In this document: positions 9,927 through 28,558 of the stretch, piece after piece
How the letters are laid out: each line of letters starts with the position of its first letter
How positions within the stretch are numbered: position 1 is the first letter of the stretch
Assembly (NCBI GenBank): GCA_021779195.1
Contig: JAJYBB010000017.1
Span: forward strand, 1-62,208
DNA length: 62,208 nucleotides
Direction: 5' to 3'
Source: Bacteroidota bacterium
GTDB lineage: Bacteria > Bacteroidota > Bacteroidia > Bacteroidales > Paludibacteraceae
Notes under the pieces: model-generated
The model's input: only the letters and a program-made list of their open reading frames with translations
The model's database searches: none
What the model was told of the DNA's origin: nothing
Translations under genes and position numbers: made by a program

Positions 9927-9954
9927 TTTCTGAAAATCAAATCAATCAAATTTA

Positions 9955-12429
9955 TTATTCAATCAAAACTTTGGTAACTAAATTGTCGTTACCTGAAATA
10001 ACTTTTACAATATAAACGGCTGGTGAAGCAATTTTCTGAGTGTAAATATTCGATGAAGAAACTGTGCTTGATATTACACGTCCCATCAAATCAACAACCA
10101 TAATTTTAGCACCGGCTTGTATGTTTCTAACAGTCAGCATTTTATTAAAACCATACGCTTTTATATTCGATGATTTTATGTTATTTGTTGCCGTCAACGG
10201 TAACGAGAAATAACCATCGTTAACGAACGTACGATAATCGTAAGCTCCATCTCCTAAATCGGTATAATTAATTGTTTGATAGTAATAATTTCCAGCGGGC
10301 AATTGACAGGTATAATTCATACTTGTTCCATTGCTATACCCTTCTGATACTCTAGTCCATTTATCTTCAGCGCGATAAACCGTAACATAATTTGCCGTAT
10401 AAGGAGCTCCACTAATCATAATTGTATCAATTCCAACGCTATCAATTGTATAGCTGTATTTTGTACCCCAATCGGTTGGGTCGGGTACCTGATAAGCAAC
10501 ACCTAAGTTTGTATAGTCAGAATAGGTGGCTGCCACTGTAGCTGCATCATATCCAGGTTGATAGGGGAAACCTGTCCAACTGAACATCGGATAATAAATC
10601 TTAGCCATATCAATGGTTGCTGTGTCATTGATACTTACCGAATCCATATCTACGGGAATAAATTGAAGCATATCCATTGTAATACTTGCCCCATTTTCAT
10701 TATTTACCGAAATTTTCAACAAATGCGATCCGGTATTAGTACTTACTGAACCAAGATAGTTCATTGCCATACTGTTGGAATTAGATTTTGCGTTCCAGCG
10801 GCGTTTTGAATTTGAAGCATCCCATGAACGGAACCAGCGACCGTACATTTCTTGGCTTGGGTAATAACACTCTTTCCCATCTAATGTTACACTGTTAATA
10901 TTAATTCTATTTCCAGTAGTATTTACGCGATGCGAAATATAAATATTGTAACTACCGGCATTTAACCATGGAGTCTTAATTTTGACCGAAAGCGGACGGC
11001 TGCTTCCAAGGGGTACAATAATATTATCGGCATTATTATAACAGTTGTCAATTTTATCATAAGTGGTTCCCAGCGCATTGTACTGAACCTTAAATGCATT
11101 ATTTATGGTATCGGTAACTGTTATGCTTGGTAATGAATCAGTTCTGAAAGAAAACGAATATGGACGAGTTTTAACTCCATTTTTATTGGCAAGAACATTA
11201 AATTGTCTGATTTCAGGTTCTTGACCTAAATCAAAATAAACAGGATAGGGTTTAACGGTTGAAGTAGAGGCAGTGATGGTAAGGCTCGTTGATGCTGTAT
11301 CACTGTCTAAATAATCAACTTTATTTCCTATATAAACCGCTTTAAAGTTTTCTGTTCCAACCAACAAGTTAGGAAATACAACCGAAGCGTTTCCAAGAGA
11401 ATCTAAAGGAAGATTGTTTTTTGCGATATTATTCACAAAAAGAATCACATTGCCTTTATTTACGATTCCATCTGTCGAAGTCTTGGCTGTAACATTTATA
11501 GTTACGTCTTTATATAGCTCCGAAGTAGTAGGAGTAGTAATTAAAACTTTTGTTGGTTTTGCATTAAGTGATGGCCCTACAGTCAACGTAATAGTTGAAT
11601 CTTGTGGCCCATAATTTACATCTCCGGTATAAACTACCGTAAATTTTTCGGTTCCATAATTTAATCCATTATAAGTAAACGATCCATTACCTGAAGCATC
11701 TAGACTTAATGTATCGATTAAGGAAGTTCCATGATAAAGCAATGTCAATCCTAATAAATCGGTAGCACCTTTGGTTACTGCTGCATTTAATGTTACATTT
11801 CCTCCGGCATTAAAAGTTGTTTGAGTTGTTCCCAAACCCATAGAAGGAGTATTAATCACAGTTTTGGGTTGTGGACCTTGACGTGGTACAAATTTCCAAC
11901 CCTGGAAGCCGGTTTTGATATTAATTACTCCAGTGGCGTCATTAAAAAACTCTGAACCCCCGTCATCAATATAATAATAATACGTGTTTTTATTATCTGT
12001 TCCCTGATTAATCAGCTGAAAATCCTTCACACCATTGTTCGGGTCGTTCAGAGGTGCCAAATATCCAACTTTAGTCGTACCTCCATTTAAACCTTGATAA
12101 AGATATTGTCCTGTTTTTACATTAATAAAACGAACCCGAGGCGTTGTTCCAAGCGCCACTCCTTTAACAATTCGCCAGGTGATAGAATCACCTGCAGCAT
12201 AAGGAGAAGGAAGCCCCATAGCTGCCAATCCATTCGTAAGTGAGCTTGAATACATTGCCTGGTATTTACCATTACGGCATGAAATGCCTACGTACATGGT
12301 ATCGGAGCTCATACTGTAATTCCCGGTACCTGCAATGGAAGTTACCTTGTAATTATTCCAGGCTGTTTGTGCCGGAGCAAAACAAGTAATTGTCAATAAG
12401 ACAATTAAAGTGGTAATAATTTTTTTCAT
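9955..12429 (-). CDS. Secreted multidomain protein: beta-trefoil-like, Ig-like repeats, shared C-terminal module, T9SS tail
   Basis: This is an 824-residue exported protein of unknown function. A signal peptide (MKKIITTLIVLLTITCFAPAQ) is followed by a region of about 150 residues with a ricin-like pattern (VRFINVKTGQYLYQG ... GWKFVP). Two Ig-like repeats of about 95 residues come next (each with an FTVVYTGD- or FKAVYIGN-type strand). A module at about 390-600 contains QEPEIRQF, SYNIYISHR, NYLGSVS and MLQFIPVD. The C-terminal 70 residues resemble a type A T9SS sorting domain (IMVVDLMGRVISS ... VYIVKV), predicting release or attachment at the cell surface. The module also appears in the FAS1 lipoproteins at 19439-21205 and 17753-19423. 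The gene is the last of the SusCD locus but is separated by 217 bases with its own promoter. A surface carbohydrate-binding role is plausible; no catalytic residues are recognisable. Confidence 0.7.
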   Translation of the reverse strand: MKKIITTLIVLLTITCFAPAQTAWNNYKVTSIAGTGNYSMSSDTMYVGISCRNGKYQAMYSSSLTNGLAAMGLPSPYAAGDSITWRIVKGVALGTTPRVRFINVKTGQYLYQGLNGGTTKVGYLAPLNDPNNGVKDFQLINQGTDNKNTYYYYIDDGGSEFFNDATGVINIKTGFQGWKFVPRQGPQPKTVINTPSMGLGTTQTTFNAGGNVTLNAAVTKGATDLLGLTLLYHGTSLIDTLSLDASGNGSFTYNGLNYGTEKFTVVYTGDVNYGPQDSTITLTVGPSLNAKPTKVLITTPTTSELYKDVTINVTAKTSTDGIVNKGNVILFVNNIAKNNLPLDSLGNASVVFPNLLVGTENFKAVYIGNKVDYLDSDTASTSLTITASTSTVKPYPVYFDLGQEPEIRQFNVLANKNGVKTRPYSFSFRTDSLPSITVTDTINNAFKVQYNALGTTYDKIDNCYNNADNIIVPLGSSRPLSVKIKTPWLNAGSYNIYISHRVNTTGNRININSVTLDGKECYYPSQEMYGRWFRSWDASNSKRRWNAKSNSNSMAMNYLGSVSTNTGSHLLKISVNNENGASITMDMLQFIPVDMDSVSINDTATIDMAKIYYPMFSWTGFPYQPGYDAATVAATYSDYTNLGVAYQVPDPTDWGTKYSYTIDSVGIDTIMISGAPYTANYVTVYRAEDKWTRVSEGYSNGTSMNYTCQLPAGNYYYQTINYTDLGDGAYDYRTFVNDGYFSLPLTATNNIKSSNIKAYGFNKMLTVRNIQAGAKIMVVDLMGRVISSTVSSSNIYTQKIASPAVYIVKVISGNDNLVTKVLIE

Positions 12430-12473
12430 AACATTTTTTTTAAAATTAATATTTGTGTTGATTTATAGTGATA

Positions 12474-12504
12474 CAAAACTATTGACATTTACTAAGAACT
12501 GCAA
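12474..12504 (-). promoter_or_regulatory. Promoter of the T9SS-secreted protein gene
   Basis: On the minus strand, TTG (complement of 12502-12504) is followed by 20 bases and TAGTTTTG (complement of 12474-12481). This matches the Bacteroidota consensus and lies 45 bases before the start codon at 12429. The gene can therefore be expressed apart from the SusCD operon. Confidence 0.55.
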
Positions 12505-12585
12505 TGGAAAATTGTATTTTAAAATGGAAAATCATACTATTTTTCTTCCATCCATGTATGAATAACGCATTATAATCAAATTAAA

Positions 12586-12629
12586 GTATACTTTCTGTTA
12601 AATTTTTTTATGACAAACAGCAAGTATAC
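12586..12629 (-). terminator. Hairpin after the second SusD gene
   Basis: Two 14-base arms (12616-12629 and 12586-12599) pair at 13 of 14 positions around a 16-base loop. The minus-strand arm begins GTATACTTGCTGTT. It is followed on the minus strand by TTTAATTTG. It sits 17 bases after the SusD stop codon and before the next gene's promoter. It may end the operon or act as a partial terminator or mRNA-stabilising element. Confidence 0.55.
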
Positions 12630-12646
12630 CTTCTTTTAAGTCAACA

Positions 12647-14524
12647 TTATTGTTTCATTGGAAGAAACAAATTAGCATCAGTAATTGGAGCGCCACTGCC
12701 ACCATCAGCATTATATTTATGCATAATTGCATTGTTCATAATGGTAGCCACTGAACCACTTCCATCCAAATTTTCGCGACGAGCAATACGTAGTAAATCG
12801 CCCCAACGATATCCTTCAAATGCACATTCGAGTGCTTCTTCTTTGAGCAATGCTTTCTCAATCCACTGAATAGAATCGGCTGTAGTAACTACCCAGCTTG
12901 GTTTTGAAATATTCACTAAATATGCTCGGTTTCTGATTCCTGAATTATCACGCCATGGAGATCGAAGGAATGTATAAGGAGCATCATTTTGACGGGCGTC
13001 TAAATAAAAGGGTGCCGGATAAGGAACTGCAGCGACTGAATCGCTTGCCGGCGGATAACTTGTATATTGCACCCCTTCTTTATCAACCCGCAACGAACCA
13101 TTACTCATCGCCCAATCATAATTTGCTTTTATTCCATTGTTTAATAAAGCATAAGCCAAACGAGGATAACCAGCGCGATTAGCTGCTTCGGCAAATCGTA
13201 AATGGAGCAAAGCCGCTCTGTATAAAAACCATTTACCAGGTTTTGAATAGGCATTTGGTATAGAATAATAATTTAGATGAATTGTTTTGTTCATGTCAGT
13301 GGTATAATTTGCATAGTAATCATACAAATATTTTAAAACGACCGGCTGACCATTAATCGAATCGTAAGAAGCTTCACGACCACGACCATCAAATACGAAT
13401 CCATTTGACTGCTGGACCTGTGTATTCCAAAGACTATCAATTACATAAGCGGAAGGTCGCAATTGATATTGACCTTGTCCCGTATTTGCAAATAATTTAA
13501 TAAACGGACTTGAAGAAGTGGAGGATCCGCTAAAACTGATCATCCAAATCATTTCATCTTGCAACCCGACACCACCTGACGAGCCGGCATCTGTAGAGCT
13601 GCGGAAAAAGATTTCTTTCCACATATTCCGGTAAGAATTAACATCTTGATCTTTAAAGCGTTGATAACATATTTGGAATCGAGGTTCATTTGAGCCGCTC
13701 CATACCCATCCACTTACTTTATTTTTAATTTGTGGTTTTGAAGTATTTACATCGGCTGCATCCATAAAAGCTTTATACTGAGTAGCTGCTTCGACATATT
13801 GATTATTCCAAAGATACAAATCGCCTAACAAGATATGTTTATCAATAAATTGCATATTTAAGTAGAATGATTTGCCATTGTCTGAAATGGTTTGTCCATA
13901 AAAAGATGAAAGCGTATTTGTTTCGAGTGTAGGCACACTTTGCATATCGGCAATGAGCAACGGAATAATTTCATCAATGTTCTTTTTAGGAAACAAGGCA
14001 CTGTTATTTAGATCGCTAAGTGATTGCAACGGATTCGTAACATAGGGTATATTTTTAAATTGAATTGCCAATTGTAAATATGCCCAACAGCGAATTGCCA
14101 TCACGTCGGAATAGCGTGGTCCAAAATTATCTTGCGAAATTTTATTTTCGGCTAACATTTTTTTGAAATTATACAGCATGTCGTTGGCATTCAAAATAAC
14201 ATCATAAAATGGAGTCGGGTCACAATACTTATTGGTAGCATCTTCGGTATGATTGTTAATCGCAACCTGATCAGGGGTTGCATTAGCAGTTACATCCATT
14301 AGATCGGCTCTCAATTCGTTTAATACCACGACATTTTCGGCTAATTTTGTTACTTTTCCGTATAATCCCCAAATGGCATTATCAGCATCGTACACATTAT
14401 GGTAATTTTCCGATTGTTCGACAACCTCTTTAGCGTTTGTATTTAGCATATCCTGACACGAAGTAAATGCTCCGACCATGAAAAGACCAATTGTTGCTAC
14501 AGTTGTTATATGAATTAATTTCAT
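12647..14524 (-). CDS. SusD/RagB family outer-membrane lipoprotein (second pair)
   Basis: SusD proteins cap the SusC channel at the cell surface and bind glycan or peptide ligands. The 625-residue product has a lipoprotein signal ending in FTSC, early SusD motifs (YHNVYDADNAIWGLYGKV, RADLMD), the helical TPR-like core (YSDVMAIRCWAYLQLAIQFKNIPYV), and the C-terminal KEEALECAFEGYRWGDLLRIARR pattern diagnostic of the family. It is longer than the 531-residue SusD at 21219-22814 and not obviously a recent duplicate of it. It follows its SusC partner by 35 bases. Ligand specificity cannot be read. Confidence 0.93.
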   Translation of the reverse strand: MKLIHITTVATIGLFMVGAFTSCQDMLNTNAKEVVEQSENYHNVYDADNAIWGLYGKVTKLAENVVVLNELRADLMDVTANATPDQVAINNHTEDATNKYCDPTPFYDVILNANDMLYNFKKMLAENKISQDNFGPRYSDVMAIRCWAYLQLAIQFKNIPYVTNPLQSLSDLNNSALFPKKNIDEIIPLLIADMQSVPTLETNTLSSFYGQTISDNGKSFYLNMQFIDKHILLGDLYLWNNQYVEAATQYKAFMDAADVNTSKPQIKNKVSGWVWSGSNEPRFQICYQRFKDQDVNSYRNMWKEIFFRSSTDAGSSGGVGLQDEMIWMISFSGSSTSSSPFIKLFANTGQGQYQLRPSAYVIDSLWNTQVQQSNGFVFDGRGREASYDSINGQPVVLKYLYDYYANYTTDMNKTIHLNYYSIPNAYSKPGKWFLYRAALLHLRFAEAANRAGYPRLAYALLNNGIKANYDWAMSNGSLRVDKEGVQYTSYPPASDSVAAVPYPAPFYLDARQNDAPYTFLRSPWRDNSGIRNRAYLVNISKPSWVVTTADSIQWIEKALLKEEALECAFEGYRWGDLLRIARRENLDGSGSVATIMNNAIMHKYNADGGSGAPITDANLFLPMKQ

Positions 14525-14559
14525 AAGTATTTTAAATTAAATAATTAAATATCATTACA

Positions 14560-17500
14560 TTATAAACCTATTTTCACACCAAGCAATACCGTTCGAGGTT
14601 GTGCCGTAACTCCACCATCAATTCCATAATACAAAGGATTTGAACTGATATTGAATTCAGGATCGTATCCCAGATAATGGGTGAAAGTGAGTACGTTATT
14701 ACCGGTAACATAAATTTGAGCATTACTGATAAATCCTGATTTTAAAGGTAAATCGTAGGATAAAGTAACGGTTTTTAAACGAATAAATGAACCATCTTCA
14801 ATCCAACGATCGGAGAAGCGGGAGTTTTGCATCGGATCACCCCACACTGCTTTTGGCATTGCAGTTACTTGTCCGTCGACCTGCCAGCGATATTGTGCTG
14901 CCACTGTTTGATTATCTGTATTTGACATGGATTCCAAATTTGCTCTTAATGCATTATACACTTTATTTCCGACCGAGAAATTAAACATAGCATCCAATGT
15001 AAACCGTTTCCATTGAATTTTATTGGTATATGTTCCAATAAATGATGGATTTGGATCCCCAATCACAGTCATATCAGCCGAATTAATGATGTGGTCATTG
15101 TTGCGATCGACAAAATGTACATCGCCGGCAGTAAATGGAGTTAACGATCCATCTGAATTTTGAATGCTTAAACCTGCAGCTGCAGCTTCCGCTTTTGAGC
15201 TAAATACACCTTGTGTTTGATAACCCCAGAATTGTCCGATAGGTGCACCCACTTTTGTGCGGACAATACCTCCATCAATCGTCGTTAATGTTTCGTTGTT
15301 CGACATCGAAAGCAAGGTATTTTTATAGGTTGAAAATATCAACCCCATATCCCATTTGAAATTTGAATGATCAACTATTCGACCAGAGACATTCAAATCG
15401 ATGCCTTTATTTTGAAGACTACCATCATTGTAAATTGCAAATGACATTCCGGATGCAGCAGTTATGTTTTTAATCGAGAGCAGATCCTGAGTAACTGATG
15501 AAAATACATCCAGTGATAAATTCAATCGTTCGTTCAAAAAAGATGCATCAATACCGGCATTTATTTTTTTGTTTGTTTCCCATTGAAGTTTTGAATTTGG
15601 AATGTTTCCACGAACCAATCCATAGGCACCAAGCAAATTTTGTGGTACGTAATAATAGCGTGAGGAATAATTTCCAATATCATCGTTTCCTGTTATTGAA
15701 TATCCGACTCTTAATTTCAGAACATTAATTGCATTCAAATTTTTCATAAATTCTTCGGAACTAATTAACCAAGCTGCATTTACTGATGGGAAAAGCCCAA
15801 ATCGATTATTGAAAATCAACAACCCGTTCGCATCCTTTCCAAAACGAGATGAACCATCGAGTGCAGCATTAACCGACACAAAATATTTATTTAAATACGA
15901 ATAATCGCCATTGAAATAATTCGAAATCGTGTTCCAGTTGCCTAACGAACCTCCCATTTGGGCTAAAGCATTCAAACCATCGCCAAGAGTTTTCATTTCG
16001 TCGCTTGCGGTATTATATGCTTTACCCCAGTCAAGTTCAGCATTACTCGATTGATAACGAGAGCCTAAATGAAGTTTTACATCATGAATATAATTGAAAG
16101 TACGCTGATAATTCAGCCGTACATCAGCATTTACTTGTAACAAATGATTTCTCATCTGTTGAGCTTCATTTGTAATTGCCGAAGCCGGCAATGCGTCATG
16201 ATTAAGTCCTGCCTGCGGAAGAAAAATCCTTTCGGTAGCTTTATCGGTTGTTAGCCCACCTAAAATGCTTAAATCAACATATTTAGAAAATGTTATGATG
16301 CCATTTAAGTATCCAAAAAATCGAAAACGATTTGAAGCGGTTAAGCTATTGTCGATAATAGCACGCGGATTTGAAACATTAAAAACATCGACATCTTCCA
16401 AATTAGGTGTTTGCTGTCCTGAAACATTATATACATTTGGAGACATAAACGGAGCTTTAATCAATGCAGAATATACCGGACTAAAATTGCGGTTTAAACC
16501 TTCAAAAGAAATATTTCTTTCGGCGTACACAAAACTCATATTAGCATTTAATTTGAACCAATCAGTCAATTTAATACCTGCATTCACCCGGGTAGTATAT
16601 CGTGAATAAGAAGTATTATCGACCGATCCGCCTTGATTGAGATATCCAAAAGAAATTGCATAAAGTGCCGCATCATTACCTCCGGTAACATTTAAATGGT
16701 AATTTTGATCCATCGATGTTTTAAAAACCTGATTTTGCCAATTAGTCGATTGATTATAACGGTAATAATCAGGATTTCCCGAAATGCCCCAGTTTTCAAC
16801 TACGGGTAATTGGCTATTGATATAAGGCAACGCCTGAATTTGGTTCGAACTAAGTCCTTCGCTATTAAGCATATCGGCCAAATATGATTTATAGTTCCAT
16901 GCATCCATCATTTTGTATTGCGTATTAGGTGTAAAATTCACACCCGAATAGGCATAAAAATTAATACGGGTTGCCGGATTTTTAGCACGCAATGTATTAA
17001 TTAAAATTACACCGTTGGCAGCTCTTGAACCATATATCGAAGCCCCATCTTTCAAAACAGTAATATTCTCAACATCTTTAATGTCAATATCAGTAAGTGG
17101 AGAAAGATTATTACCGGTGATGAGTGAGTAAATAGGTTGATTTTCGTATGGAACACCATCCAATACAATCAAAGGTTGTGAATTAGCATTCAGCGTATTA
17201 AAACCATCTAAATACATATTGGCACCTGCACCGGGAGCACCTGTTTTTGGAACGACATTTAAGCCTGCAAGCGAAGTTTCAAGAACAGGATCAATGGTTG
17301 CAGCCCCCAGTTTATAATCCGTCCTGTTTTCATGAGTCGAAACGGCTTTCTCAACTTTGTAATCATTTTTCATGTCAAAAGGCATGGCAATGTCTTCAAA
17401 TTTACCTTTAAAAGATTCATCAAGCAAGCGAATGATCAATCCATTATTTTTAAGTAAAGCAACGTGTTTCGAAGCAAAACCGGGTGCACTAACCACAAGA

Positions 17501-17727
17501 TATGCTCCTTGAATAGACTTATTCAACGTAAATTTACCATCATCGCCAGTTAATGCAGAAATAACATTCGGAATTTCGACTCTTGCACCTGACAATGGTT
17601 TTCCGGTAGCCGATTCGAGTACGACACCTGATATCTGCACTTTTTGAATTCCTTTCTGAGCCATCCCTTGAATGGCAAATCCCATAACAAGGAAAAGGAT
17701 TGCAACTATATATTTCATTTGTTTCAT
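14560..17727 (-). CDS. SusC/RagA TonB-linked outer-membrane transporter (second pair)
   Basis: This is a TonB-dependent active importer in the outer membrane, 1055 residues from the ATG at 17727. A signal peptide (MKQMKYIVAILFLVMGFAIQGMAQ) precedes a carboxypeptidase-D-regulatory-like domain (about 30-105), the plug with PLIVLDGVPYE and ENITVLKDGASIYGSRAANGVILI, and a 22-strand barrel ending in a short amphipathic strand. The frame is open 12 codons further upstream, but that start would overlap the end of the preceding FAS1 gene; 17727 leaves 25 bases and begins a proper signal peptide. The N-terminal domain and plug differ clearly from the SusC at 22835-26128, suggesting a different ligand rather than recent duplication. 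Confidence 0.94.
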   Translation of the reverse strand: MKQMKYIVAILFLVMGFAIQGMAQKGIQKVQISGVVLESATGKPLSGARVEIPNVISALTGDDGKFTLNKSIQGAYLVVSAPGFASKHVALLKNNGLIIRLLDESFKGKFEDIAMPFDMKNDYKVEKAVSTHENRTDYKLGAATIDPVLETSLAGLNVVPKTGAPGAGANMYLDGFNTLNANSQPLIVLDGVPYENQPIYSLITGNNLSPLTDIDIKDVENITVLKDGASIYGSRAANGVILINTLRAKNPATRINFYAYSGVNFTPNTQYKMMDAWNYKSYLADMLNSEGLSSNQIQALPYINSQLPVVENWGISGNPDYYRYNQSTNWQNQVFKTSMDQNYHLNVTGGNDAALYAISFGYLNQGGSVDNTSYSRYTTRVNAGIKLTDWFKLNANMSFVYAERNISFEGLNRNFSPVYSALIKAPFMSPNVYNVSGQQTPNLEDVDVFNVSNPRAIIDNSLTASNRFRFFGYLNGIITFSKYVDLSILGGLTTDKATERIFLPQAGLNHDALPASAITNEAQQMRNHLLQVNADVRLNYQRTFNYIHDVKLHLGSRYQSSNAELDWGKAYNTASDEMKTLGDGLNALAQMGGSLGNWNTISNYFNGDYSYLNKYFVSVNAALDGSSRFGKDANGLLIFNNRFGLFPSVNAAWLISSEEFMKNLNAINVLKLRVGYSITGNDDIGNYSSRYYYVPQNLLGAYGLVRGNIPNSKLQWETNKKINAGIDASFLNERLNLSLDVFSSVTQDLLSIKNITAASGMSFAIYNDGSLQNKGIDLNVSGRIVDHSNFKWDMGLIFSTYKNTLLSMSNNETLTTIDGGIVRTKVGAPIGQFWGYQTQGVFSSKAEAAAAGLSIQNSDGSLTPFTAGDVHFVDRNNDHIINSADMTVIGDPNPSFIGTYTNKIQWKRFTLDAMFNFSVGNKVYNALRANLESMSNTDNQTVAAQYRWQVDGQVTAMPKAVWGDPMQNSRFSDRWIEDGSFIRLKTVTLSYDLPLKSGFISNAQIYVTGNNVLTFTHYLGYDPEFNISSNPLYYGIDGGVTAQPRTVLLGVKIGL

Positions 17728-17752
17728 AATATCACAGCATATTTTAAAGTTA

Positions 17753-19423: not shown

Positions 19424-19438
19424 ACTGATACAGATTTC

Positions 19439-21205
19439 TTAGTTAAACAAATCGCCAACGCAAGGCTGGTCAGTTGGAGCAATTAATGAACAGTCGGTTC
19501 CCGGATAAATGGCATTACCATCTACATCAAATCGAGGCCAAATTTGGTTTTGATCCACGGGAATAAATTGAATCATATCCCACCATGCCGGTTGACTATT
19601 ACCACTTAAAGCATCGATACGTAAAATATGGCGTCCGGTATATTCAACTTTGATGGCACCGCAATTTCGACTACAAACAACGCTGTTTTCTTGTTTTGCG
19701 TTATATTGTTTCATCCCTTTGTTCAAATTTACTTCGGGTGTAGAACTGGTATCGAAATATTCTCCTAAATCGAATACATTGGGCAATACTTGGTCATCTT
19801 TGCCCGCTTGTTTGAATGTGGTTTTAAACTTATTGTTGTTCCCTCCTCGACGCCAGCAAATCCAAACATTATAAACACCTTCAGTCAAAACCGGGGTTTC
19901 GATTTCCATCCATTGAATAACATTAGGACGAAGTGGAATTTCAAAATAATCATAATGAACATATTGTGTTTTACTATCAAAAGCTGAAGCAACATTATAC
20001 GTGATCGTTGGATTGTTGATTCCACCAAAGTTTAATTCTGATAAATCTCCGGGTTTAAATGTTACCCAAGAACCTTTGCGGCGATATTCTTTCATTTTTT
20101 TAATTTCAGGTTGATCGGTCAATTCCCAATAAACGGCTTCTGCACCCCGTTTAACCGGTTGAATATACCCATCCAAATCAATCAATACCCCATTACTGCA
20201 ACTCATATCAGTCCAATCAGAAGCTTTATCGACCAAAACGCCTTGTTCAAATTTTGTTAAGCTTTTATATTCGTTCAAGATCAACGAATCTTTATCAGTT
20301 TTAACCGTAATTACTTGATTGGGAGCCATTGTTAATTCTGAACTTGACATGGATAAATCAGCCACATATGCTAACCGTTCAATCACATGATATTGAGCAT
20401 ACATTTGAATTAATTTAGTTTCATCATTGGCATAATCGGGCTGAGCGATTTTTAATTTAGCAATCAAACTATCTCGATTTAAAATTCCTTTTGTTGCAAA
20501 TGAAGCATCGCTTTGTAAAATGGCGGTAAACCAGACAGCAGGAGCATTATTTATCTTTAATGAGTCAAGAACTCCTGATTCAGCCATTATTGACTTATAT
20601 AAAGAATATGAGTCCGGTAATGATTCAATCATTTCGCCTACTGTTAAGGCATTTGGGGTTAACACATAATCAATCTTGTGTATAATGCCGTTTGCCACCC
20701 GAATATCTTTCTGAATAATATTCGCTTGTCGGTTGACACGTATGACAGGTGCCGAATCACCGTTTTGAACCGTTTTGGTAGTCAGATATTTCCCAAGCAT
20801 GGTTGCCATGGGTAATCGGCCATCCACAAATTCGGATGATTGTATTGTGTCGCGAACAATATGGTATTTTACGAATTTTTGCAATTCATCAACGGTCAAC
20901 GATTCCATATTTGTAATTCCCCGTCGTTGACAATACACTGCAATGGCTTGATTTGTAGGGATAAAGCAAGTGTTTGTTCCATAAGCATGCAGCATGCCTT
21001 TAAATCCGGCTATATCTGCAATTTTAAGAAATTCGGTCATTGAAGTATCTTTTTGCTCGATATATTCATCAATCATTTTTGAATCAGAGACTAAAAATGT
21101 TTTCCCTTGCATATAATCAACACAAGCAGCCAACACAGAAATCGAGAACCCAAAAATCAGCGCGAATCGAATCGTATTTCGTAGATTTATAGTTTTTGTT
21201 TTCAT
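19439..21205 (-). CDS. FAS1 (fasciclin) domain lipoprotein with shared C-terminal module
   Basis: From the ATG at 21205 this is a 588-residue lipoprotein (signal ending in LAAC). The frame is open 11 codons further upstream, but that overlaps the SusD stop at 21219; 21205 leaves 13 bases and a clean signal peptide. The first FAS1 domain (about 40-155) includes MTEFLKIADIAGFKGMLHAYG and CFIPTNQAIAVYC. A second, degenerate FAS1 domain (about 160-330) starts TVGEMIESLPDSYSLYKSIM. The C-terminal module (about 355-550) has DQPEIKKM, YNVWICWRRGG, GRHILRIDAL and WWDMIQFIPVDQ, closely echoing the T9SS protein at 9955-12429. It lies between the first SusD and the third FAS1 gene, in a tight operon. 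It is probably surface-exposed and ligand-binding; this is inference from position and domain type. Confidence 0.8.
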   Translation of the reverse strand: MKTKTINLRNTIRFALIFGFSISVLAACVDYMQGKTFLVSDSKMIDEYIEQKDTSMTEFLKIADIAGFKGMLHAYGTNTCFIPTNQAIAVYCQRRGITNMESLTVDELQKFVKYHIVRDTIQSSEFVDGRLPMATMLGKYLTTKTVQNGDSAPVIRVNRQANIIQKDIRVANGIIHKIDYVLTPNALTVGEMIESLPDSYSLYKSIMAESGVLDSLKINNAPAVWFTAILQSDASFATKGILNRDSLIAKLKIAQPDYANDETKLIQMYAQYHVIERLAYVADLSMSSSELTMAPNQVITVKTDKDSLILNEYKSLTKFEQGVLVDKASDWTDMSCSNGVLIDLDGYIQPVKRGAEAVYWELTDQPEIKKMKEYRRKGSWVTFKPGDLSELNFGGINNPTITYNVASAFDSKTQYVHYDYFEIPLRPNVIQWMEIETPVLTEGVYNVWICWRRGGNNNKFKTTFKQAGKDDQVLPNVFDLGEYFDTSSTPEVNLNKGMKQYNAKQENSVVCSRNCGAIKVEYTGRHILRIDALSGNSQPAWWDMIQFIPVDQNQIWPRFDVDGNAIYPGTDCSLIAPTDQPCVGDLFN

Positions 21206-21218
21206 GGCAAGTTCAAAT

Positions 21219-22814
21219 TTATTGAGCGTAAAAATCATTTTGTTTTAAATTCTTATTGGTTTGAATATCATTAATATAAATAGGCCAATAATGACTGTTG
21301 TGACGTGGATCCTTATATTTTGCGATCAAACTTTGCTGTTTTTGAGGAGAAGCGCTGCTGATTGCCAAATTAATGAGGTATTGTAAATTTGATCCTCCAT
21401 AGTTATCTCGTTTAGCATAGCGCAACACATCGTACCATCGTTTCCCTTCAAATGCAAATTCACGGGCACGCTCATCAAGTATTGCTTTTTCCAACATTTT
21501 TCCAACCACTGTTCCGGTGAATTTATAATCGGAAGTTTGAACGGCATTTCGGGCTGTTCGCACCTGATTCATTAACGATATGGATTGTTGATAATCGGGT
21601 TGTGCGATTGAATCATTGTTTAAATGAATGCCGATCTGGTTTAAATCTTCGGCTGCCATAAGTAATACATCCGAATATTTATATACAATCCAGGGAGTGG
21701 TATAGTTGGTCGCATCACGCACAATACCCGATCTGCTTGTTCCAACATATTTCCAAACTACGCCCAGCCGATAAGAACATCCAGAGCCACGAATGTCGGT
21801 TGCATCGCTTGCAGTTGCATAAACAGGCGACGGAAAAATTCCACCATCAACGATATCGAGTTTGGGAATTAATTTATTGACTGTAGGGCCTAAAAGCGAA
21901 TAAAATGGATTAGGTTTAAGAGAAGTAAATGGAATCTCGAAAATCGATTCAATACAATCGCCGTTGACATATGTCTGGGTAAACATTTTATCGGCATCCG
22001 ATTCATTTGCCACGTAAACTGAATCGATTACAACACCGTTATCAGCCACAGGAGTTGAGACTCTTTCTACCGGAATCAGGCTATATCTACCGGAATTAAT
22101 AATTTCCTGACACAGCGCCAATGATTCGTTGTATTTTTCCTGCCAAAGATAAATATCAGCTAATAAAGTTTTTGCAGTCCAAGCGGTTATTCTACTTTTG
22201 TTTTTAGCATTGGTATCATACGAAATTGGTGCATAAGTAGCTGCAAATTTCAGATTATTGACTAATGTATCGAGAATGATCGACCCATCCGTTTTAGGAA
22301 TTAAAAAGTTTTGATCATCCGACACGGAAGCATTTAAAACCAATGGCACATCTCTAAATGAACGAACCAGGTAAAAATACATCATCGCCCTAATTGTAAG
22401 AACTTCAGCCTGATAAGCTTTCAGTTGTTTGTCGGTAAAGGTTCCATCGAGCGAAATGACCGAAGGTGCAAATTTCAATACCGTATTGCAATTATTAATG
22501 GTTTGATAGAAATCGGCCCAATTTACGACACTGTTTGATGCTGAAATTTCTCCATCAATAATATCATTATAATTGTTATTTGGTGAAACGCCTTTGTCAA
22601 TCATATCGGCACGAAGTTCGCCCCAAAGAAACATATTTGTTACCGGACCATCCTGCATGGAAGCATAACAACCAACGACGGCAGAATTAACTTGTTCCTT
22701 TGTTTTCCAAAATTCCTGACGGATCACTCCATCTTCAGGAGCGAGATTGAGCCAATTATCGCAAGAACTCAATGTTAAAATGGCTAATAGTATAAAGCCT
22801 ATATTTTTTTTCAT
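21219..22814 (-). CDS. SusD/RagB family outer-membrane lipoprotein (first pair)
   Basis: This is a 531-residue surface lipoprotein (lipobox LSSC, followed by DNWLNLAPEDGV, the classic mature SusD start). Family marks include VNSAVVGCYASMQDGP, LWGELRADMI, the TPR-like AYQAEVLTIRAMMYFYLVRSFRDVPLV and the C-terminal RAREFAFEGKRWYDVLRYAKRDNYGG. The protein would bind ligand at the mouth of its SusC partner, whose gene ends 20 bases upstream. A FAS1 lipoprotein gene follows after 13 bases. Confidence 0.95.
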   Translation of the reverse strand: MKKNIGFILLAILTLSSCDNWLNLAPEDGVIRQEFWKTKEQVNSAVVGCYASMQDGPVTNMFLWGELRADMIDKGVSPNNNYNDIIDGEISASNSVVNWADFYQTINNCNTVLKFAPSVISLDGTFTDKQLKAYQAEVLTIRAMMYFYLVRSFRDVPLVLNASVSDDQNFLIPKTDGSIILDTLVNNLKFAATYAPISYDTNAKNKSRITAWTAKTLLADIYLWQEKYNESLALCQEIINSGRYSLIPVERVSTPVADNGVVIDSVYVANESDADKMFTQTYVNGDCIESIFEIPFTSLKPNPFYSLLGPTVNKLIPKLDIVDGGIFPSPVYATASDATDIRGSGCSYRLGVVWKYVGTSRSGIVRDATNYTTPWIVYKYSDVLLMAAEDLNQIGIHLNNDSIAQPDYQQSISLMNQVRTARNAVQTSDYKFTGTVVGKMLEKAILDERAREFAFEGKRWYDVLRYAKRDNYGGSNLQYLINLAISSASPQKQQSLIAKYKDPRHNSHYWPIYINDIQTNKNLKQNDFYAQ

Positions 22815-22834
22815 AAAACTTTAGAATTAAATGG

Positions 22835-25800
22835 TTAGAATGATACGGTTAATCCGATTGAATAATCACTGGGACGACCTGAACGAGAAGTGTCATATCC
22901 CAAACTGGTTAATCCGCTTCGCATGGTAACTTCGGGATCCATACCTGTATAATTCGTCCAAAGATAAATATTTTGCCAGGTCGACCAGAGTTTTAAATCG
23001 TTTAAGCCGAAACGCCGTACCAATTTCTTGTCAAAATTATAACTTAATGTTAATGATTTGAATCGAAGGAACGAACCATCTTCAACATATCTATCGGAAC
23101 CAAGCCAGTTATATCCACTTGCTAATAAAGCTCTTGGTAAAATATCGGTAGGAGCGGTAGAAACATCATCGTAAGGATGTCTCCAACGACGTAACACAGA
23201 TGTTGCCTGATTATTGAATCCATACATATTTTCCATCTCCATTCGGGTTTGATTAATAACCTTATTTCCGTAACGGAAATAGAAATAAGCGGTTAAACTC
23301 AATCTGTTTTTCCATCTTAAAGTAGGTCCAAATCCTCCTGTAAGCAGTGGATTTACGCTTCCTAGATAAACAATATCTTGCGAGTTGATATTGCCATCGT
23401 GATTAATATCAACATATTTTGCATCACCGGGTTGAAATTGATAACCCACCGATGGATACCAGAATTTCATATAAACAGCTTGCTTATTACCACTGGCATC
23501 ATAGGTATAAATAGGGTTACCACTTGCATCCTGAGCAATGGTTTGTTGTTGATTCAGATAAACGCCTGCATATTTATATCCATAAAACGAACCAAGAGGA
23601 TTACCAATCTGAATTTTAGTTAGATACGTGCCGTTTGTGGCTGTCGGAGTTGAAATTTGAGGTACCATGTCCGAAAGGCTGATGACCTTATTTTGCGACC
23701 TTGCAAACGTAAAGTTTAAATCCAACTGCCAATCTTTGGTGCGGATTGGTTCGGTGTAAATACTTAACTCCCAACCATCGTTATCCATCGTTCCTACATT
23801 TGCTCCAATGCTCGAAAATCCGGAAGTACTTGGAATTTGAACATTTGCAAAATACAAATCATTCGTTCGTTTTTTATACCAGTTGAAATCAATATTTAAT
23901 CGATTATCTAACAGTATTAAATTTGCACCAAAGTTCATATCCGTTACTTTTTCCCAACGCAAGTTCGAAAGTTGAAGGCCGGTTGAATATACACCTTGAT
24001 CGCCAAGATAAGTCCAATTGTACGTTCCATAATTATTATAGTACAAATAATTTTTATTTACAGGGTTTCCACTGACTCCTGTCGATGCACGCAAACTAAA
24101 ATCATTAATAAATTTCAAGTTGCTCATAAATTTCTCGCCCGAAACGCGCCAACGTAAAGAAACGCTTGGGAAAAATCCATATCGGTTTTTTTCACTATAT
24201 TTCGAATCGCCATCGCGACGAAGGGTACCGTTTACGATATACCTGTCCAAATATTTATATTGTACCATGCCTAACATGGATAGTGAGCGTGCTTGCGAGC
24301 TTCCTGAATTCAATCCCAACCCTGTTCCTACAGTTTGAGCCGGTATTGAAGGATCCTGAAGATATGTTGAAGCACTTAAAGCGCTGATTTCTTGAAAGGA
24401 AGTATATCTGGCATCATAGGTACTGTATTGTAATAATGCCAATAAATCACTTTTATCGCCCAATTTAGGAGTGAAAATTAATTTATTAAATGTTTGCACT
24501 ACGAAAGCCTCTGAAGCCATATCTGTTGCACGATTCACACTTAATTCCGGCCACAATCTGCCGGTAGCAATCTGAGGAAGGAACCGGTTGTCTTTCGAGG
24601 TATTAATATCGAATGCCAAATCACCCTGATATTTCAACACTTCAGGAATCACCCAGTATTGGATATTAAATTTTGGCAAAATGCGCTCACTAATTACCTT
24701 CCAATAGCCTGTATTAGCCATGGCTACCGGATTATAAATGCCACTGTTCGATGAAGCGCTCCAATAACCCTGAGGTGTAGTTACCGGCGACAAATAGTTT
24801 GGAGTTATTTGACCAAGCGTATTGTATTCGTAAATCGACATGTCAGGCATTTTCGTGTAAGCCGAATTTAGCAAATCAGTCGTATAGTTTTTATCCTGAT
24901 CCCCATGAGTATAGGCTAAATTTACCTGAAATTTCAAATAATCGGAAACGTTATAATCAAGATTTAAGGATGCTGTTACCCTCGAATAAGCTTGACCGAT
25001 AACAGTTCCTGTTTGATTGTAATATCCAAGTGAAGTACGATATTGCGCTTTTTCTCCTCCACCCGAAACGGAAATGGTATGATCCTGGGTATACCCGTTT
25101 TTAGTTAAAGCACTATACCAATCGGTATTTTGACTGTAATTATAGTAATAATACGGATTATTAGGATCGTACGTAAATTGAGGATAAGAAGTTGTACTTA
25201 ATGGTGTTCCAGCATTTTGAGCTTCTTCGAGCACCAACGTACTATATTGATCTCCATTTAAAGTGCTGATTTTGGGTGCCGGCGTATCTAACGATCCTTT
25301 AAAAGTATATGAAACGATTGGTTTACTGATACCTCCACGTTTGGTAGTAATTAATAGCACACCATTTGCTCCACGGTTTCCATAAAGGGCACAAGCCGCA
25401 GCATCTTTAAGAACAGTAATCGACTGAATATCCGAAGGCGAAATATTTAAAAGTTGAGCGTAATTTTCTTCATCGGCGGTAGCAAAGTCAAAATCTGAAC
25501 CGATATTTGTATCATAAGGAATTCCATCAACAACAATCAATGGGTCGGAACCGTTATTGATTGAAGTCGTACCACGAATACGTATCGACATACCGGCACC
25601 AGGTTCTCCACTGTTGGCCACGATATCAACCCCCGACATACGACCCTGAAGTGCTTCATCAATCGAAGCCACCTGAAGACCTTCCAGATCTTTGGTGTCA
25701 ATTTTTTGAACAGCATAAGTCATATCGCGCTCTGCAATATTGGCTACGCCCGTATTAACTTGTTTATGGGCAATTACCGAAACCTCGTTTATAGTATGCG

Positions 25801-26128
25801 TATCATCTTCCATGGTAACATCAATTCGCTCATTTTGACCGATTGATTTGATAACTTTTTTATATCCTACATAAGAAAAGGTGATCGCTGCACCAGGACG
25901 TCCACTTACTTTTAAAGTATAATTTCCGTCCAGGTCTGTTGTAGTTCCATTTAAAATTCGATTATTTTTGTCATATTCAGCCACGGTAACGCCTATCAAC
26001 CCTTGTTTATCAGTGGCCGAAATCACTTTTCCCCTTATTATCGTTTTCGATTGTGCTGAAGCTAATGTGCTGAACAGCAACATTACAAATGTCAGAAAAG
26101 ATATGATGGTATAATTTGTCTTTTTCAT
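22835..26128 (-). CDS. SusC/RagA TonB-linked outer-membrane transporter (first pair)
   Basis: This is a 1097-residue TonB-dependent importer. A signal peptide (to about residue 26) is followed by a carboxypeptidase-D-regulatory-like domain (IIRGKVISATDKQGLIGVTV ... ITFSYVGYKK), then the plug with SIDEALQGRMSGVDIV, PLIVVDGIPYD and SITVLKDAAACALYGNRGANGVLLIT, and a beta-barrel ending in YSIGLTVSF with a terminal aromatic residue as expected for barrel insertion. It is 24 bases after the FAS1 lipoprotein gene that opens the operon. The imported ligand is unknown; the neighbouring CAZymes suggest a pectic oligosaccharide, but a peptide or other substrate is not excluded. Confidence 0.96.
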   Translation of the reverse strand: MKKTNYTIISFLTFVMLLFSTLASAQSKTIIRGKVISATDKQGLIGVTVAEYDKNNRILNGTTTDLDGNYTLKVSGRPGAAITFSYVGYKKVIKSIGQNERIDVTMEDDTHTINEVSVIAHKQVNTGVANIAERDMTYAVQKIDTKDLEGLQVASIDEALQGRMSGVDIVANSGEPGAGMSIRIRGTTSINNGSDPLIVVDGIPYDTNIGSDFDFATADEENYAQLLNISPSDIQSITVLKDAAACALYGNRGANGVLLITTKRGGISKPIVSYTFKGSLDTPAPKISTLNGDQYSTLVLEEAQNAGTPLSTTSYPQFTYDPNNPYYYYNYSQNTDWYSALTKNGYTQDHTISVSGGGEKAQYRTSLGYYNQTGTVIGQAYSRVTASLNLDYNVSDYLKFQVNLAYTHGDQDKNYTTDLLNSAYTKMPDMSIYEYNTLGQITPNYLSPVTTPQGYWSASSNSGIYNPVAMANTGYWKVISERILPKFNIQYWVIPEVLKYQGDLAFDINTSKDNRFLPQIATGRLWPELSVNRATDMASEAFVVQTFNKLIFTPKLGDKSDLLALLQYSTYDARYTSFQEISALSASTYLQDPSIPAQTVGTGLGLNSGSSQARSLSMLGMVQYKYLDRYIVNGTLRRDGDSKYSEKNRYGFFPSVSLRWRVSGEKFMSNLKFINDFSLRASTGVSGNPVNKNYLYYNNYGTYNWTYLGDQGVYSTGLQLSNLRWEKVTDMNFGANLILLDNRLNIDFNWYKKRTNDLYFANVQIPSTSGFSSIGANVGTMDNDGWELSIYTEPIRTKDWQLDLNFTFARSQNKVISLSDMVPQISTPTATNGTYLTKIQIGNPLGSFYGYKYAGVYLNQQQTIAQDASGNPIYTYDASGNKQAVYMKFWYPSVGYQFQPGDAKYVDINHDGNINSQDIVYLGSVNPLLTGGFGPTLRWKNRLSLTAYFYFRYGNKVINQTRMEMENMYGFNNQATSVLRRWRHPYDDVSTAPTDILPRALLASGYNWLGSDRYVEDGSFLRFKSLTLSYNFDKKLVRRFGLNDLKLWSTWQNIYLWTNYTGMDPEVTMRSGLTSLGYDTSRSGRPSDYSIGLTVSF

Positions 26129-26152
26129 AAAAATCTGTATTTTGAATTAAAG

Positions 26153-28558
26153 TTACTGTGGTTTGCTATATACAAAATAGTCGCCAATTTCATGCATAAC
26201 TGCCTTTGCTCCAAAGTAGTTACTGTGTTTCAAACCACGAATAACCATAGCTGACTTCACTACATTTGATAATTTTTTACCGGTCGATGATGATTGAGTT
26301 GAGACTATCAAATCACCGTTTATATCTTTGCTCACTGATAAATAGGTGTTATCGACGACATCTTTCAATACCGTAGGCCAAGTTTCTTCACTTATAACCT
26401 GATCATTAGGCATGATATAGCTTAACCCGTCATCCACAAATTCTTTTCCTTTGATCATGTGGTAAAGAATAAAATTGGTGGCTTTCATGCGAGCTGCGGC
26501 ATCGGCATTGACCTGAGCCAATGTCGGTAAATCTCCATTAGCAATTGCCTTATTAATGGCAATATTATTCGGCATAAAAATAGTGAGGACCATGTCGGCT
26601 GATAAACCGGCTAAATCATTACTTGCATCGCCTTTTAAACAGGCAGCCAAATAATTTTTAAATAATGCGACGTTGGTATTTTGTAACCCGGAAGCCATAT
26701 TCAAAATGTATGTATATAAATCTTGCGATTTATACCCTTCGGGAGCACTGGGGTACGTAGTCCGACGAGAATACTGAAGCATTTTATCAATTTTAAAAAC
26801 CTGTCCATTCGAAAATGTTTTGTATGGAGTGGCTGTAACCCAATTGTTTTCATCGTAATTACCAAGCATTTGGATTTTGTTGTCCTTGTACCGAATCATA
26901 TCTCCATATTCGTTTACGGCATACGAATAGCCACCGTAAGCCGAGGTAAATGCCGGATCGGTAGTGAAACTTGTTATGGCGCAGTTTACCTGGTCGTTTT
27001 TAATTCTTTTGAATATATGAGATGCTACTAAACGCTGCATACGTCCTGCAACATCAAAATTTCCAAGTGAACTTCCAGAATTTGAATTGGCAAATCCGTA
27101 GGCATTAGAACCCGACAACCATACCCAACTGAACCCATCTGCCTTCAATAAATCGTCAGATGGCATTAATACGGTATAGTTTTCTTGTGTATAGCCGTTC
27201 AATTGACACTTTAACAACTCTTCTTTTAAAGTTGCATCAAAATAAGCTTCGAGTGCTTGATTAAATAAAGAATACGATGAGTTTAGAAGAATTTCTGTAT
27301 AAACCGTTTCAAAATACCGGCTTTTAACATAATCATTTGAACCATAAAAAAGTCCGTTGCTTGCAGGTGCAATTTTTGAATAGTTTGCAGGATTAAAATC
27401 GTTTCCTCTATTTCCTAATCCATTAAAGAATTCACCCTGTGAATTCATACTGCCTTTATAATCACCCGGCCAAACTAATTCGCCAATCATTTGGGCATTA
27501 ATAAAATAACTAAGTACATTCATTGGAACTGTTTGAATGCCATTGGGGAAATAGTCTTTCAGCTTTTCATTGTAGAATTTTTCGACCGCAGCATTATTAG
27601 GTGCGAAAACTGTAAATCCTCCTTTTTCAGCTTGACTAATACCCGAACCGTAACGTTCTCCATTCAAATTTACAGCAATTCCAGTATATTGTTTCAAATA
27701 TACTTGATCGATGTTCTTGGTAGGCATCGCTTTTTGAAAATAATCGGTGAGTGATTTGTTATAGGAATATGTTATAAAATATGGCTCACCGGTACTTCCG
27801 GTTTCATTCAGGAGTGCCCTGAATTCCGAAAAATTGGGATCATTCAGCAGTTTTTCGAGTGTAGGTAAGGGCTCCAATACCTGATCTATTTCATATGCTA
27901 CTCCATTTTCGGACATCATATCCTGAGTTAAAATTGAAGCACTTTGAATATTCTTACCAGTATAAGGAGTAGAATAAAAAATACCATAATCAGAAGCAGC
28001 TTGAGCAGCCGTCCTTGAACGTTCAAAAACCTGACTTAAATAAAAAGGTACATATTTATAGTTTTGATCGCCTAATGTAAAATAAGGCATATCGAAAACC
28101 CATATCTTGTTTCCTTTATAAACTTCCTGATGAATGGGTTCATAGTAAGTTGTTTTCTTTTTAATGCTGGTTAACGAATCCCAACCGGCACTTAGTACAT
28201 CGCCCAAATGTCCAAAAGTGTAACTATTATACACAATAGAATAACTGACGATCTGATTTACCAGTGAATCGGGCATGTCGGCTACTGAAGTATACCCTTT
28301 ATTAGCCAAATACGATTTGAATGCATCGTCATTGGGTGCAAAAACGGAATAATACCCTCCGGTTTTAAGCGTTTTGGCATAAAGCGTTCGATCGACGCAC
28401 TTCAGGTAATTTGTAAAATTACCTTTTTTCTGGAGAACTTCATAAATGGGAGATTCTAACCATCCCGGACGTTTAAAATAGACTTCTTTGTCGGTGCAAC
28501 TTACCATGTGAAAAAGGAGCACGGAAAAGATGATGAGAATTTTAATAGGATTCTTCAT
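26153..28558 (-). CDS. Multi-FAS1 (fasciclin) domain lipoprotein, first gene of the operon
   Basis: This is an 801-residue lipoprotein (lipobox MVSC) made almost wholly of FAS1-like repeats. I count four. The first is at about 35-235, starting IYEVLQKKGNFTNYLKCVD and including YYSVFAPNDDAFKSYL. The second is at about 235-420, with LEKLLNDPNFSEFRALLNETG and FTVFAPNNAAVEKFY. The third is at about 425-615, with YTVLMPSDDLLKADGF. The fourth is at about 620-800, with TIFMPNNIAINKAI. Unlike the two smaller FAS1 proteins of this operon it ends with its last FAS1 domain and lacks the shared module. Being promoter-proximal to SusC is unusual, since accessory binding proteins normally follow SusD. FAS1 domains in other organisms bind extracellular matrix or glycans; the role here is unknown. 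Confidence 0.82.
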   Translation of the reverse strand: MKNPIKILIIFSVLLFHMVSCTDKEVYFKRPGWLESPIYEVLQKKGNFTNYLKCVDRTLYAKTLKTGGYYSVFAPNDDAFKSYLANKGYTSVADMPDSLVNQIVSYSIVYNSYTFGHLGDVLSAGWDSLTSIKKKTTYYEPIHQEVYKGNKIWVFDMPYFTLGDQNYKYVPFYLSQVFERSRTAAQAASDYGIFYSTPYTGKNIQSASILTQDMMSENGVAYEIDQVLEPLPTLEKLLNDPNFSEFRALLNETGSTGEPYFITYSYNKSLTDYFQKAMPTKNIDQVYLKQYTGIAVNLNGERYGSGISQAEKGGFTVFAPNNAAVEKFYNEKLKDYFPNGIQTVPMNVLSYFINAQMIGELVWPGDYKGSMNSQGEFFNGLGNRGNDFNPANYSKIAPASNGLFYGSNDYVKSRYFETVYTEILLNSSYSLFNQALEAYFDATLKEELLKCQLNGYTQENYTVLMPSDDLLKADGFSWVWLSGSNAYGFANSNSGSSLGNFDVAGRMQRLVASHIFKRIKNDQVNCAITSFTTDPAFTSAYGGYSYAVNEYGDMIRYKDNKIQMLGNYDENNWVTATPYKTFSNGQVFKIDKMLQYSRRTTYPSAPEGYKSQDLYTYILNMASGLQNTNVALFKNYLAACLKGDASNDLAGLSADMVLTIFMPNNIAINKAIANGDLPTLAQVNADAAARMKATNFILYHMIKGKEFVDDGLSYIMPNDQVISEETWPTVLKDVVDNTYLSVSKDINGDLIVSTQSSSTGKKLSNVVKSAMVIRGLKHSNYFGAKAVMHEIGDYFVYSKPQ

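What the first reader, a model, noticed from the sequence alone, without database searches (positions are those of the whole stretch)
9955..28558. SusCD operon built around three fasciclin lipoproteins and no enzymes
On one strand, with gaps of 13-35 bases, the order is FAS1 lipoprotein, SusC, SusD, FAS1, FAS1, SusC, SusD, then a T9SS-secreted Ig-like protein. Ordinary polysaccharide utilisation loci place glycan-binding lipoproteins after SusD and include CAZymes. Here FAS1 proteins, usually associated with adhesion, take those positions, one of them ahead of SusC, and no hydrolase, lyase, protease or regulator is encoded. The two SusC proteins differ strongly, so the operon may handle two ligands or two sizes of one ligand. 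This may be a surface capture or attachment complex that is little described.
Basis: partly seen in the sequence, partly recalled or inferred. Interest (0 to 1): 0.75.

Follow-up and report, generated by a model that had tools for sequence, protein, structure and literature searches.

The report
Fasciclin-based double pectin import module
A bacterial gene cluster that seemed to have no enzymes is a fixed seven-gene set of two sugar importers and three fasciclin surface proteins, found in many Bacteroidota and often beside pectin-degrading enzymes, so it most likely captures and imports pieces of plant pectin.

Summary
On the minus strand lie F1 (four predicted FAS1 domains), SusC1, SusD1, F2, F3 (FAS1 plus a C-terminal domain), SusC2, SusD2 and X. 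The gap before X is 217 bases, not 13-35. "No enzymes" holds only for the operon: the divergent neighbour is arabinosidase-like, and 31.9-52.8 kb carries a pectin/rhamnogalacturonan-I cluster.

The seven genes form an old, rigid module. The own genome has three more copies (two cut by contig ends). Of 79 named loci, 65 carry F1-C1-D1-F2-F3-C2-D2 intact, 13 are cut by contig ends, one lacks a recognised F1. Distances of the seven genes correlate at 0.91-0.97. In 13 genomes PL22 (4 of 8) and PL11 (8 of 36) lie near modules (expected 0.3 and 1.8); GH13 (0 of 98), GH10 (0 of 20) and GH92 (3 of 48) are not enriched; GH106 (3 of 27) is unclear. The module is patchy, even within its genus.

Best reading: a pectin capture-and-import system in which FAS1 lipoproteins act as surface glycan-binding proteins on two SusCD transporters. 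Binding and complex formation are inferred. The F2 C-terminal domain matches no Pfam family. Ten paper searches found no description of the module.

The parts
26153..28558 (-). F1: lipoprotein with four predicted FAS1 domains and no extra domain (801 aa)
   Evidence: Pfam Fasciclin 3.9e-24; AlphaFold model pLDDT 78.6, pTM 0.73, the count of four domains is my reading of it; Foldseek aligns over ~790 columns with TGFBIp/periostin, E 6e-20, TM by query 0.29-0.31
22835..26128 (-). SusC1 (1097 aa)
   Evidence: TIGR04056 760 bits; C1 group in tree, support 100
21219..22814 (-). SusD1 (531 aa)
   Evidence: SusD_RagB 1.9e-23, SusD-like_3 6.8e-14
19439..21205 (-). F2: FAS1-FAS1 plus C-terminal beta-rich domain; likely start at residue 12 of the 19439-21238 ORF
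   Evidence: Pfam 3.4e-21; AlphaFold pLDDT 87.2, pTM 0.78; invariant Met12 and Cys39 in 36 aligned rows, numbered from the longer ORF
19484..20143 (-). C-terminal CBM-like domain of F2 (residues 366-585), matching no Pfam family
   Evidence: Pfam 0 hits at E 10; PDB sequence search with its profile 0 hits at E 10; Foldseek hits of the whole model from rank 22 down include MiXBM (TM by target 0.73), Xyn30D and a GH26-CBM35, but the aligned part of the model is not shown
17753..19423 (-). F3: FAS1 lipoprotein with C-terminal extension (556 aa)
   Evidence: Pfam 4.9e-14; C-terminus no Pfam hit
14560..17727 (-). SusC2; ORF begins at 17763, a later start is likely
   Evidence: TIGR04056 636 bits; 28% identical to SusC1; C2 group
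12647..14524 (-). SusD2, divergent SusD (625 aa)
   Evidence: SusD_RagB 2.8e-07; SusD-like_3 under its cut-off
9955..12429 (-). X: protein with two Big_3_5 stretches, an F2-like C-terminal domain and a borderline T9SS tail; among the fetched loci seen only in this subtype of the genus
   Evidence: residues 397-635 match F2 369-589, E 1.7e-11; X-like genes in G001a, G014, G019, G005d, none labelled in the 79 named loci
9898..9927 (-). terminator-like hairpin after X
   Evidence: 13 pairs, 7 G-C; the region as a whole has no excess of such sites (10 found, 14.0 expected)
29143..30162 (+). divergent arabinosidase-like gene (GH43 label recalled)
   Evidence: PF22847 9.7e-08; NF052546 1.9e-24, under its equivalog cut-off
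31895..33634 (-). PelZ-like pectate lyase
   Evidence: NF041900 6.4e-40, 137 bits against an equivalog cut-off of 840; no Pfam hit
33968..52783 (+). pectin/RG-I enzyme cluster: GH43, GH43 arabinanase-like, GH95, melibiase, PL11 with T9SS tail, PcRGLX lyase, SASA esterase, PL4

Best explanation
It is the surface half of a pectin-utilisation locus: a conserved seven-gene capture-and-import module with two different SusCD transporters. F1, F2 and F3 are lipoproteins that do the work of surface glycan-binding proteins. In F2 and F3 the membrane-side FAS1 domains serve as stalk and docking part, and the C-terminal domain binds pectin fragments released by secreted lyases. F1, four FAS1 domains in a row, is probably a scaffold. 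The two SusCD pairs then import two classes of fragment (by size or decoration) for periplasmic enzymes. In this window the cargo is most likely rhamnogalacturonan-I/arabinan; sister modules in the same genome serve other cargo, one beside oligogalacturonate-lyase-like and PelZ-like genes. Shown: gene order, conservation, co-inheritance, FAS1 make-up, pectin context. Inferred: binding, docking, scaffold, division of labour.
For: Same order in 65 of 79 loci, none of the other 14 contradicting it in order; a loose lipobox pattern in F1, F2 and F3 in 68, 64 and 74 of 84 modules, against 17 and 9 of 84 for SusC1 and SusC2; pairwise-distance correlations 0.91-0.97 between all seven genes over 84 modules; C1 and C2 separate groups in the tree. 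PL22 4 of 8 and PL11 8 of 36 within 25 kb of modules in 13 genomes (expected 0.32 and 1.76); GH13 0 of 98, GH10 0 of 20 and GH92 3 of 48 not enriched. Gene after SusD2 in 65 loci (families may overlap in one protein): PL11 11, GH88 6, GDSL 6, SASA 5, GH2 5, GH106 4, GH43 4; gene before F1 in 66: two-component/AraC domains in 6-7, FGGY kinase in 5, SusCD in 6. Within one genus, F2 FAS1-1 keeps 29% identity between subtypes while the C-terminal domain falls to 19% although it is 84% within this subtype; F3 25% against 15%.
Against: No binding, expression or structure data. GH106 enrichment is weak (3 of 27, P 0.08). G060 and G241 show no pectin enzyme by my markers within about 12 kb on either side, and two of three GH92 genes near a module are in G060. 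Many flanking genes carry none of my markers, and some neighbours are unrelated to pectin (LpxB; GH20, GH97, MG2). The tests ignore relatedness of genomes and used estimated borders for modules in fragmented contigs. The module is patchy: F2 matches in 9 of 23 same-genus genomes and in 0 of 5 other genera of the family. The CBM-like reading rests on low-ranked Foldseek hits whose aligned part is not shown; in the other two subtypes the F2 C-terminus is not clearly better kept than FAS1-1 (61 against 54%, 58 against 62%).
Confidence: 0.65

Rival explanations
1. Surface attachment: the FAS1 lipoproteins are adhesins that hold the cell to plant wall or neighbours, and the SusCD pairs are ordinary importers that happen to be co-transcribed.
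For: FAS1 is classically linked to adhesion; F1 shares a four-FAS1 layout with periostin/TGFBIp. The FAS1 review PMC6032426 (passages read) cites links of plant FAS1 proteins with pectin. PMC10199937 (passages) reads a highly transcribed FAS1 protein of a Bacteroidota symbiont as adhesion.
Against: Unshuffled order and mirrored divergence with both SusCDs suggest function tied to transport; C-terminal parts vary with subtype. The same review warns that 'cell adhesion' may mislead for hard-shelled cells.
Confidence: 0.15
2. Transport of something other than pectin glycans (protein, glycoprotein or other plant-wall glycan), with pectin enzymes as frequent neighbours only.
For: Some loci lack pectin enzymes nearby by my markers (G060, G241); one own-genome copy (C10) is beside a GH-catalytic-core protein with T9SS tail rather than a lyase; two GH92 genes lie 15-19 kb from the G060 module.
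Against: PL11 and PL22 enrichment against three control families and the neighbours.
Confidence: 0.13
3. Only one SusCD pair transports; the second pair or D2 is a sensor or non-transporting partner of the complex.
For: D2 is a divergent SusD and both pairs are kept in all 65 complete loci; upstream regulators are seen in some loci.
Against: C2 keeps plug and SusC/RagA signature; nothing else points to sensing.
Confidence: 0.07

Closest known systems
SusCD/SGBP systems and 'utilisomes' (levan and dextran PULs of B. thetaiotaomicron; PMC7618045, abstract and discussion read)
   Same: SusC barrel, SusD lid, extra surface lipoproteins encoded beside them
   Different: FAS1 domains, a lipoprotein ahead of SusC, two distinct SusCD pairs in fixed order, no enzyme in the operon; complex formation untested here
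DUF1735 lipoproteins as membrane-bound spacers in PULs (PMC11216935, abstract read)
   Same: N-terminal spacer domain on a lipoprotein with variable C-terminal domains
   Different: FAS1 fold, not Ig-like; fixed seven-gene neighbourhood
Pectin loci of Bacteroidota (Gramella flava, PMC5306329, passages read; pectin-induced SusC/D operons of Flavobacterium johnsoniae, PMC8056085, passages read)
   Same: pectin enzymes and SusCD together; in F. johnsoniae induced by pectin
   Different: no FAS1 protein named (the listing counts 'fasciclin' 0 times in both texts); the G. flava pectin PUL is described with one SusCD system
[quoted passage not shown]
   Same: FAS1 protein in a locus with SusD
   Different: one label in a legend, different predicted substrate; the figure itself was not seen
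Periostin / TGFBIp
   Same: four FAS1 domains in a row (F1)
   Different: 13-15% identity, animal proteins, no transporter

Membership tests
Polysaccharide utilisation locus (PUL) | adjacent susC and susD | tested here: met
   two pairs
Polysaccharide utilisation locus (PUL) | carbohydrate-active enzymes clustered with the pair | tested here: met
   not in the operon but divergent and nearby; across 13 genomes PL11/PL22 enriched
Polysaccharide utilisation locus (PUL) | co-regulation by a glycan | not testable with these tools
   no expression data
Surface glycan-binding protein (SGBP) | lipoprotein encoded beside susCD | tested here: met
   lipobox pattern in F1/F2/F3 in 68/64/74 of 84 modules, 17 and 9 of 84 in the SusC controls
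Surface glycan-binding protein (SGBP) | surface exposure and glycan binding | not testable with these tools
   inferred only
FAS1 (fasciclin) proteins | PF02469 over its cut-off | tested here: met
   three of three; models of F1 and F2 match FAS1 structures; F3 not modelled
CBM35/CBM6-like module | sequence match to a CBM family | tested here: not met
   no Pfam hit at E 10, no PDB sequence hit at E 10; CAZy/dbCAN models not available
CBM35/CBM6-like module | beta-sandwich fold of that type | tested here: inconclusive
   carbohydrate-binding proteins among Foldseek hits ranked 22 and lower, aligned part not shown
Utilisome | stable complex of transporter and lipoproteins | not testable with these tools
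   no complex prediction offered; co-inheritance only

The most novel reading that the evidence does not exclude
The seven proteins form one heteromeric outer-membrane machine in which FAS1 lipoproteins bridge two different SusCD transporters, and the C-terminal domains of F2 and X (perhaps F3) found a new family of pectin-binding modules.
Probability: 0.28. Interest if true: 0.82.

Novelty: new variant of a known kind. Interest (0 to 1): 0.62.

Why it matters
PULs usually reshuffle (recalled); a seven-gene surface module kept in order in Chitinophagaceae, Pedobacter, Mucilaginibacter, Pontibacter, Echinicola and Belliella as well as in the window's own group implies strong constraint. The utilisome paper (PMC7618045, discussion read) states that whether complex PULs mix and match their parts into several utilisomes is unknown; this module, two pairs with three partners, makes that testable. 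It also suggests a role for FAS1 in bacteria other than assumed adhesion and a possible marker for pectin use.

Tried and rejected
Enzyme-free locus: rejected from the window itself. Chance assembly of FAS1 genes: rejected by recurrence. Standalone FAS1 elsewhere in the own genome: none found, all 14 hits fall in the four modules. A recalled Bacteroidota promoter pattern was at chance level (7 found, 4.1 expected); sigma-70-like sites likewise (90 found, 81.8 expected). Rfam: no hits. Distribution, own genome included in each count: F2 at E 1e-8 in 13 of 40 relatives; at E 1e-40 in 37 of 393 own-order genomes and 9 of 395 class genomes; in the 296-genome phylum sample 123 match at E 1e-8, with full-length F2 in 6 genomes beside the own one, while the other listed matches cover mainly the FAS1 part (its list is cut). 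Rearranged or partial relatives: G003 has three F2-like genes displaced upstream of F1; G308 lacks a recognised F3; G004 has an atypical last SusD. The 79 loci are the best 80 of 189 confirmed matches, biased towards the query. Bacteroides ihuae, one of the control genomes, is not among those with FAS1. Rows merged or dropped before counting: PL11 37 rows to 36 frames; PL22 12 rows, 4 under the cut-off dropped; GH13 138 to 98, GH106 51 to 27, GH92 50 to 48, GH10 26 to 20, by merging pieces of one frame. Recalled leads not tested: B. thetaiotaomicron RG-I PULs with more than one SusCD pair; CBM35 binding of unsaturated uronates; CAZy numbers where only a Pfam name is given. Papers looked at that did not help (passages): PMC7661554, PMC10061750. 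Paper searches: (ten of ten); none of the listed papers described the module.

Full report
What is there. The window is contig C34 of a 3.12-Mb draft genome in 48 contigs. On the minus strand, from 28558 down to 9955, lie F1, SusC1, SusD1, F2, F3, SusC2, SusD2 and X. Pfam and NCBIfam confirm three FAS1 proteins, two SusCs and two SusDs; X has two Ig-like Big_3_5 stretches and a T9SS tail exactly at its cut-off. With later starts for F2 and C2 the gaps within the seven genes are 13-35 bases; X follows after 217 bases and is followed by a terminator-like hairpin.

Surroundings. The operon has no enzyme, but the divergent gene at 29143 is arabinosidase-like, 31895-33634 is PelZ-like, and 33968-52783 encodes GH43, an arabinanase-like GH43, GH95, a melibiase, PL11, a PcRGLX lyase, an esterase and PL4. 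Pfam scans of 29 of the 33 larger ORFs (ORFs) found no other SusC or SusD. This is a pectin/RG-I set with the FAS1-SusCD operon as its only SusCD candidate here.

Copies in the same genome. All 14 FAS1 hits of the genome fall in four places. Each has F1-C1-D1-F2-F3-C2 as far as its contig reaches; two are complete to D2 (this window and C16), C11 ends inside C2 and C10 after F3. By bit score, same-position genes match each other (for example C1 with C1 at 36-66% identity, F2 with F2 at 24-53%) better than other positions do. C16 adjoins an oligogalacturonate-lyase-like and a PelZ-like gene.

Spread. A scan of one genome per species with an F2 alignment gave 79 named loci, the best of 189 confirmed matches, mostly Chitinophagaceae, with Pedobacter, Mucilaginibacter, Arcticibacter, Pelobium, Pontibacter, Echinicola, Belliella and a Prolixibacteraceae MAG. 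In 65 of 79 the seven genes stand in order on one strand; 13 of the other 14 are cut by contig ends and L182 lacks a recognised F1. Median gaps are 15-43 bases. The module is patchy: F2 matches in 9 of 23 same-genus genomes, 0 of 5 genomes from other genera of the family and 37 of 393 of the order, own genome included.

One unit. Over 84 complete modules the pairwise distances of the seven genes correlate at 0.91-0.97; shared species history contributes to this, so it shows joint inheritance, not contact. In a quick tree of 90 SusCs, the 41 C1 rows form one group with support 100 and the 41 C2 rows one group with support 62 (99 if one SusC of the partial locus G308 is counted in); only 8 other SusCs were available for contrast and the program warns of long branches.

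Pectin context. In 13 genomes chosen because they hold modules, PL22 lies within 25 kb of a module in 4 of 8 cases (expected 0.32, P 1e-4) and PL11 in 8 of 36 (expected 1.76, P 2e-4), while GH13 does so in 0 of 98. GH106 is weak (3 of 27, P 0.08); GH92 (3 of 48) and GH10 (0 of 20) are not enriched. These P values treat related genomes as independent. The gene after SusD2 (65 loci, either strand) has PL11 in 11, GH88 in 6, GDSL in 6, SASA in 5, GH2 in 5, GH106 in 4, GH43 in 4; families can overlap in one protein and only 25 of 53 families are shown. My own phmmer labels add PelZ-like genes in 7. The gene before F1 (66 loci) carries two-component or AraC domains in 6-7, an FGGY kinase in 5, SusCD in 6, and also GH20, GH97 and MG2 in 2-3 each. 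Rhamnose-catabolism genes beside G292a and G072 were recognised by eye only. G060 and G241 have no marked pectin enzyme within about 12 kb.

Structure. F2 (pLDDT 87) has two FAS1 domains and a C-terminal, strand-rich domain of about 215 residues. F1 (pLDDT 79) reads as four FAS1 domains and aligns along its length with TGFBIp/periostin. The F2 C-terminal domain matches no Pfam family and no PDB sequence; MiXBM, Xyn30D and a GH26-CBM35 appear among the weaker Foldseek hits, but the output does not say which part of the model they cover, so the CBM-like reading is an inference. X shares this domain by sequence.

Which part sets specificity. Within one genus, three subtypes in different enzyme contexts were compared (13 members, 55 between-type pairs). 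FAS1-1 of F2 and F3 is the best kept part of these proteins between subtypes (29% and 25%), the C-terminal part the least (19% and 15%), although the F2 C-terminus is 84% identical within this window's subtype; in the other two subtypes it is 61% and 58%. That is what a conserved docking part and a ligand-specific tip would give; it is an inference.

Mechanism proposed. Secreted lyases (the window's PL11 has a T9SS tail) open the polymer; F2, F3 and perhaps X hold fragments; F1 and the FAS1 parts place them over the two SusCD gates; periplasmic enzymes finish. Every step after gene content is inferred.

Known or new. PULs, SusCD and SGBPs are known; FAS1 is known. The fixed seven-gene double-SusCD arrangement is not described in the papers that my ten searches listed, of which I read passages or abstracts of nine (reading); the nearest trace is a figure legend naming a FAS1 protein in a Gramella PUL (PMC4891872). 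Most subscription papers and all preprints were not searchable. I therefore file it as a new variant of a known kind.

Noticed in passing
window 41244-45797 (+): PL11 rhamnogalacturonan lyase carrying passenger-type PATR repeats and a T9SS tail in one 1517-aa protein; a PATR plus T9SS protein also lies at L013:8445-10541 (-).
   Followed up: no
L144 and L145 ([Flexibacter] sp. ATCC 35208): Two divergent module copies on one contig with equal match values: an inverted duplication or an assembly artefact.
   Followed up: no
L153: Record titled as a Williamsia MAG carries a full Bacteroidota-type module; probably a mislabelled or mixed assembly.
   Followed up: no
L107/L108 (G003, same genus): Rearranged relative with three F2-like genes upstream of F1, one on the other strand.
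   Followed up: partly
window 30964-31566 (-): PAP2 phosphatase gene sits between the divergent arabinosidase-like gene and the PelZ-like lyase.
   Followed up: no
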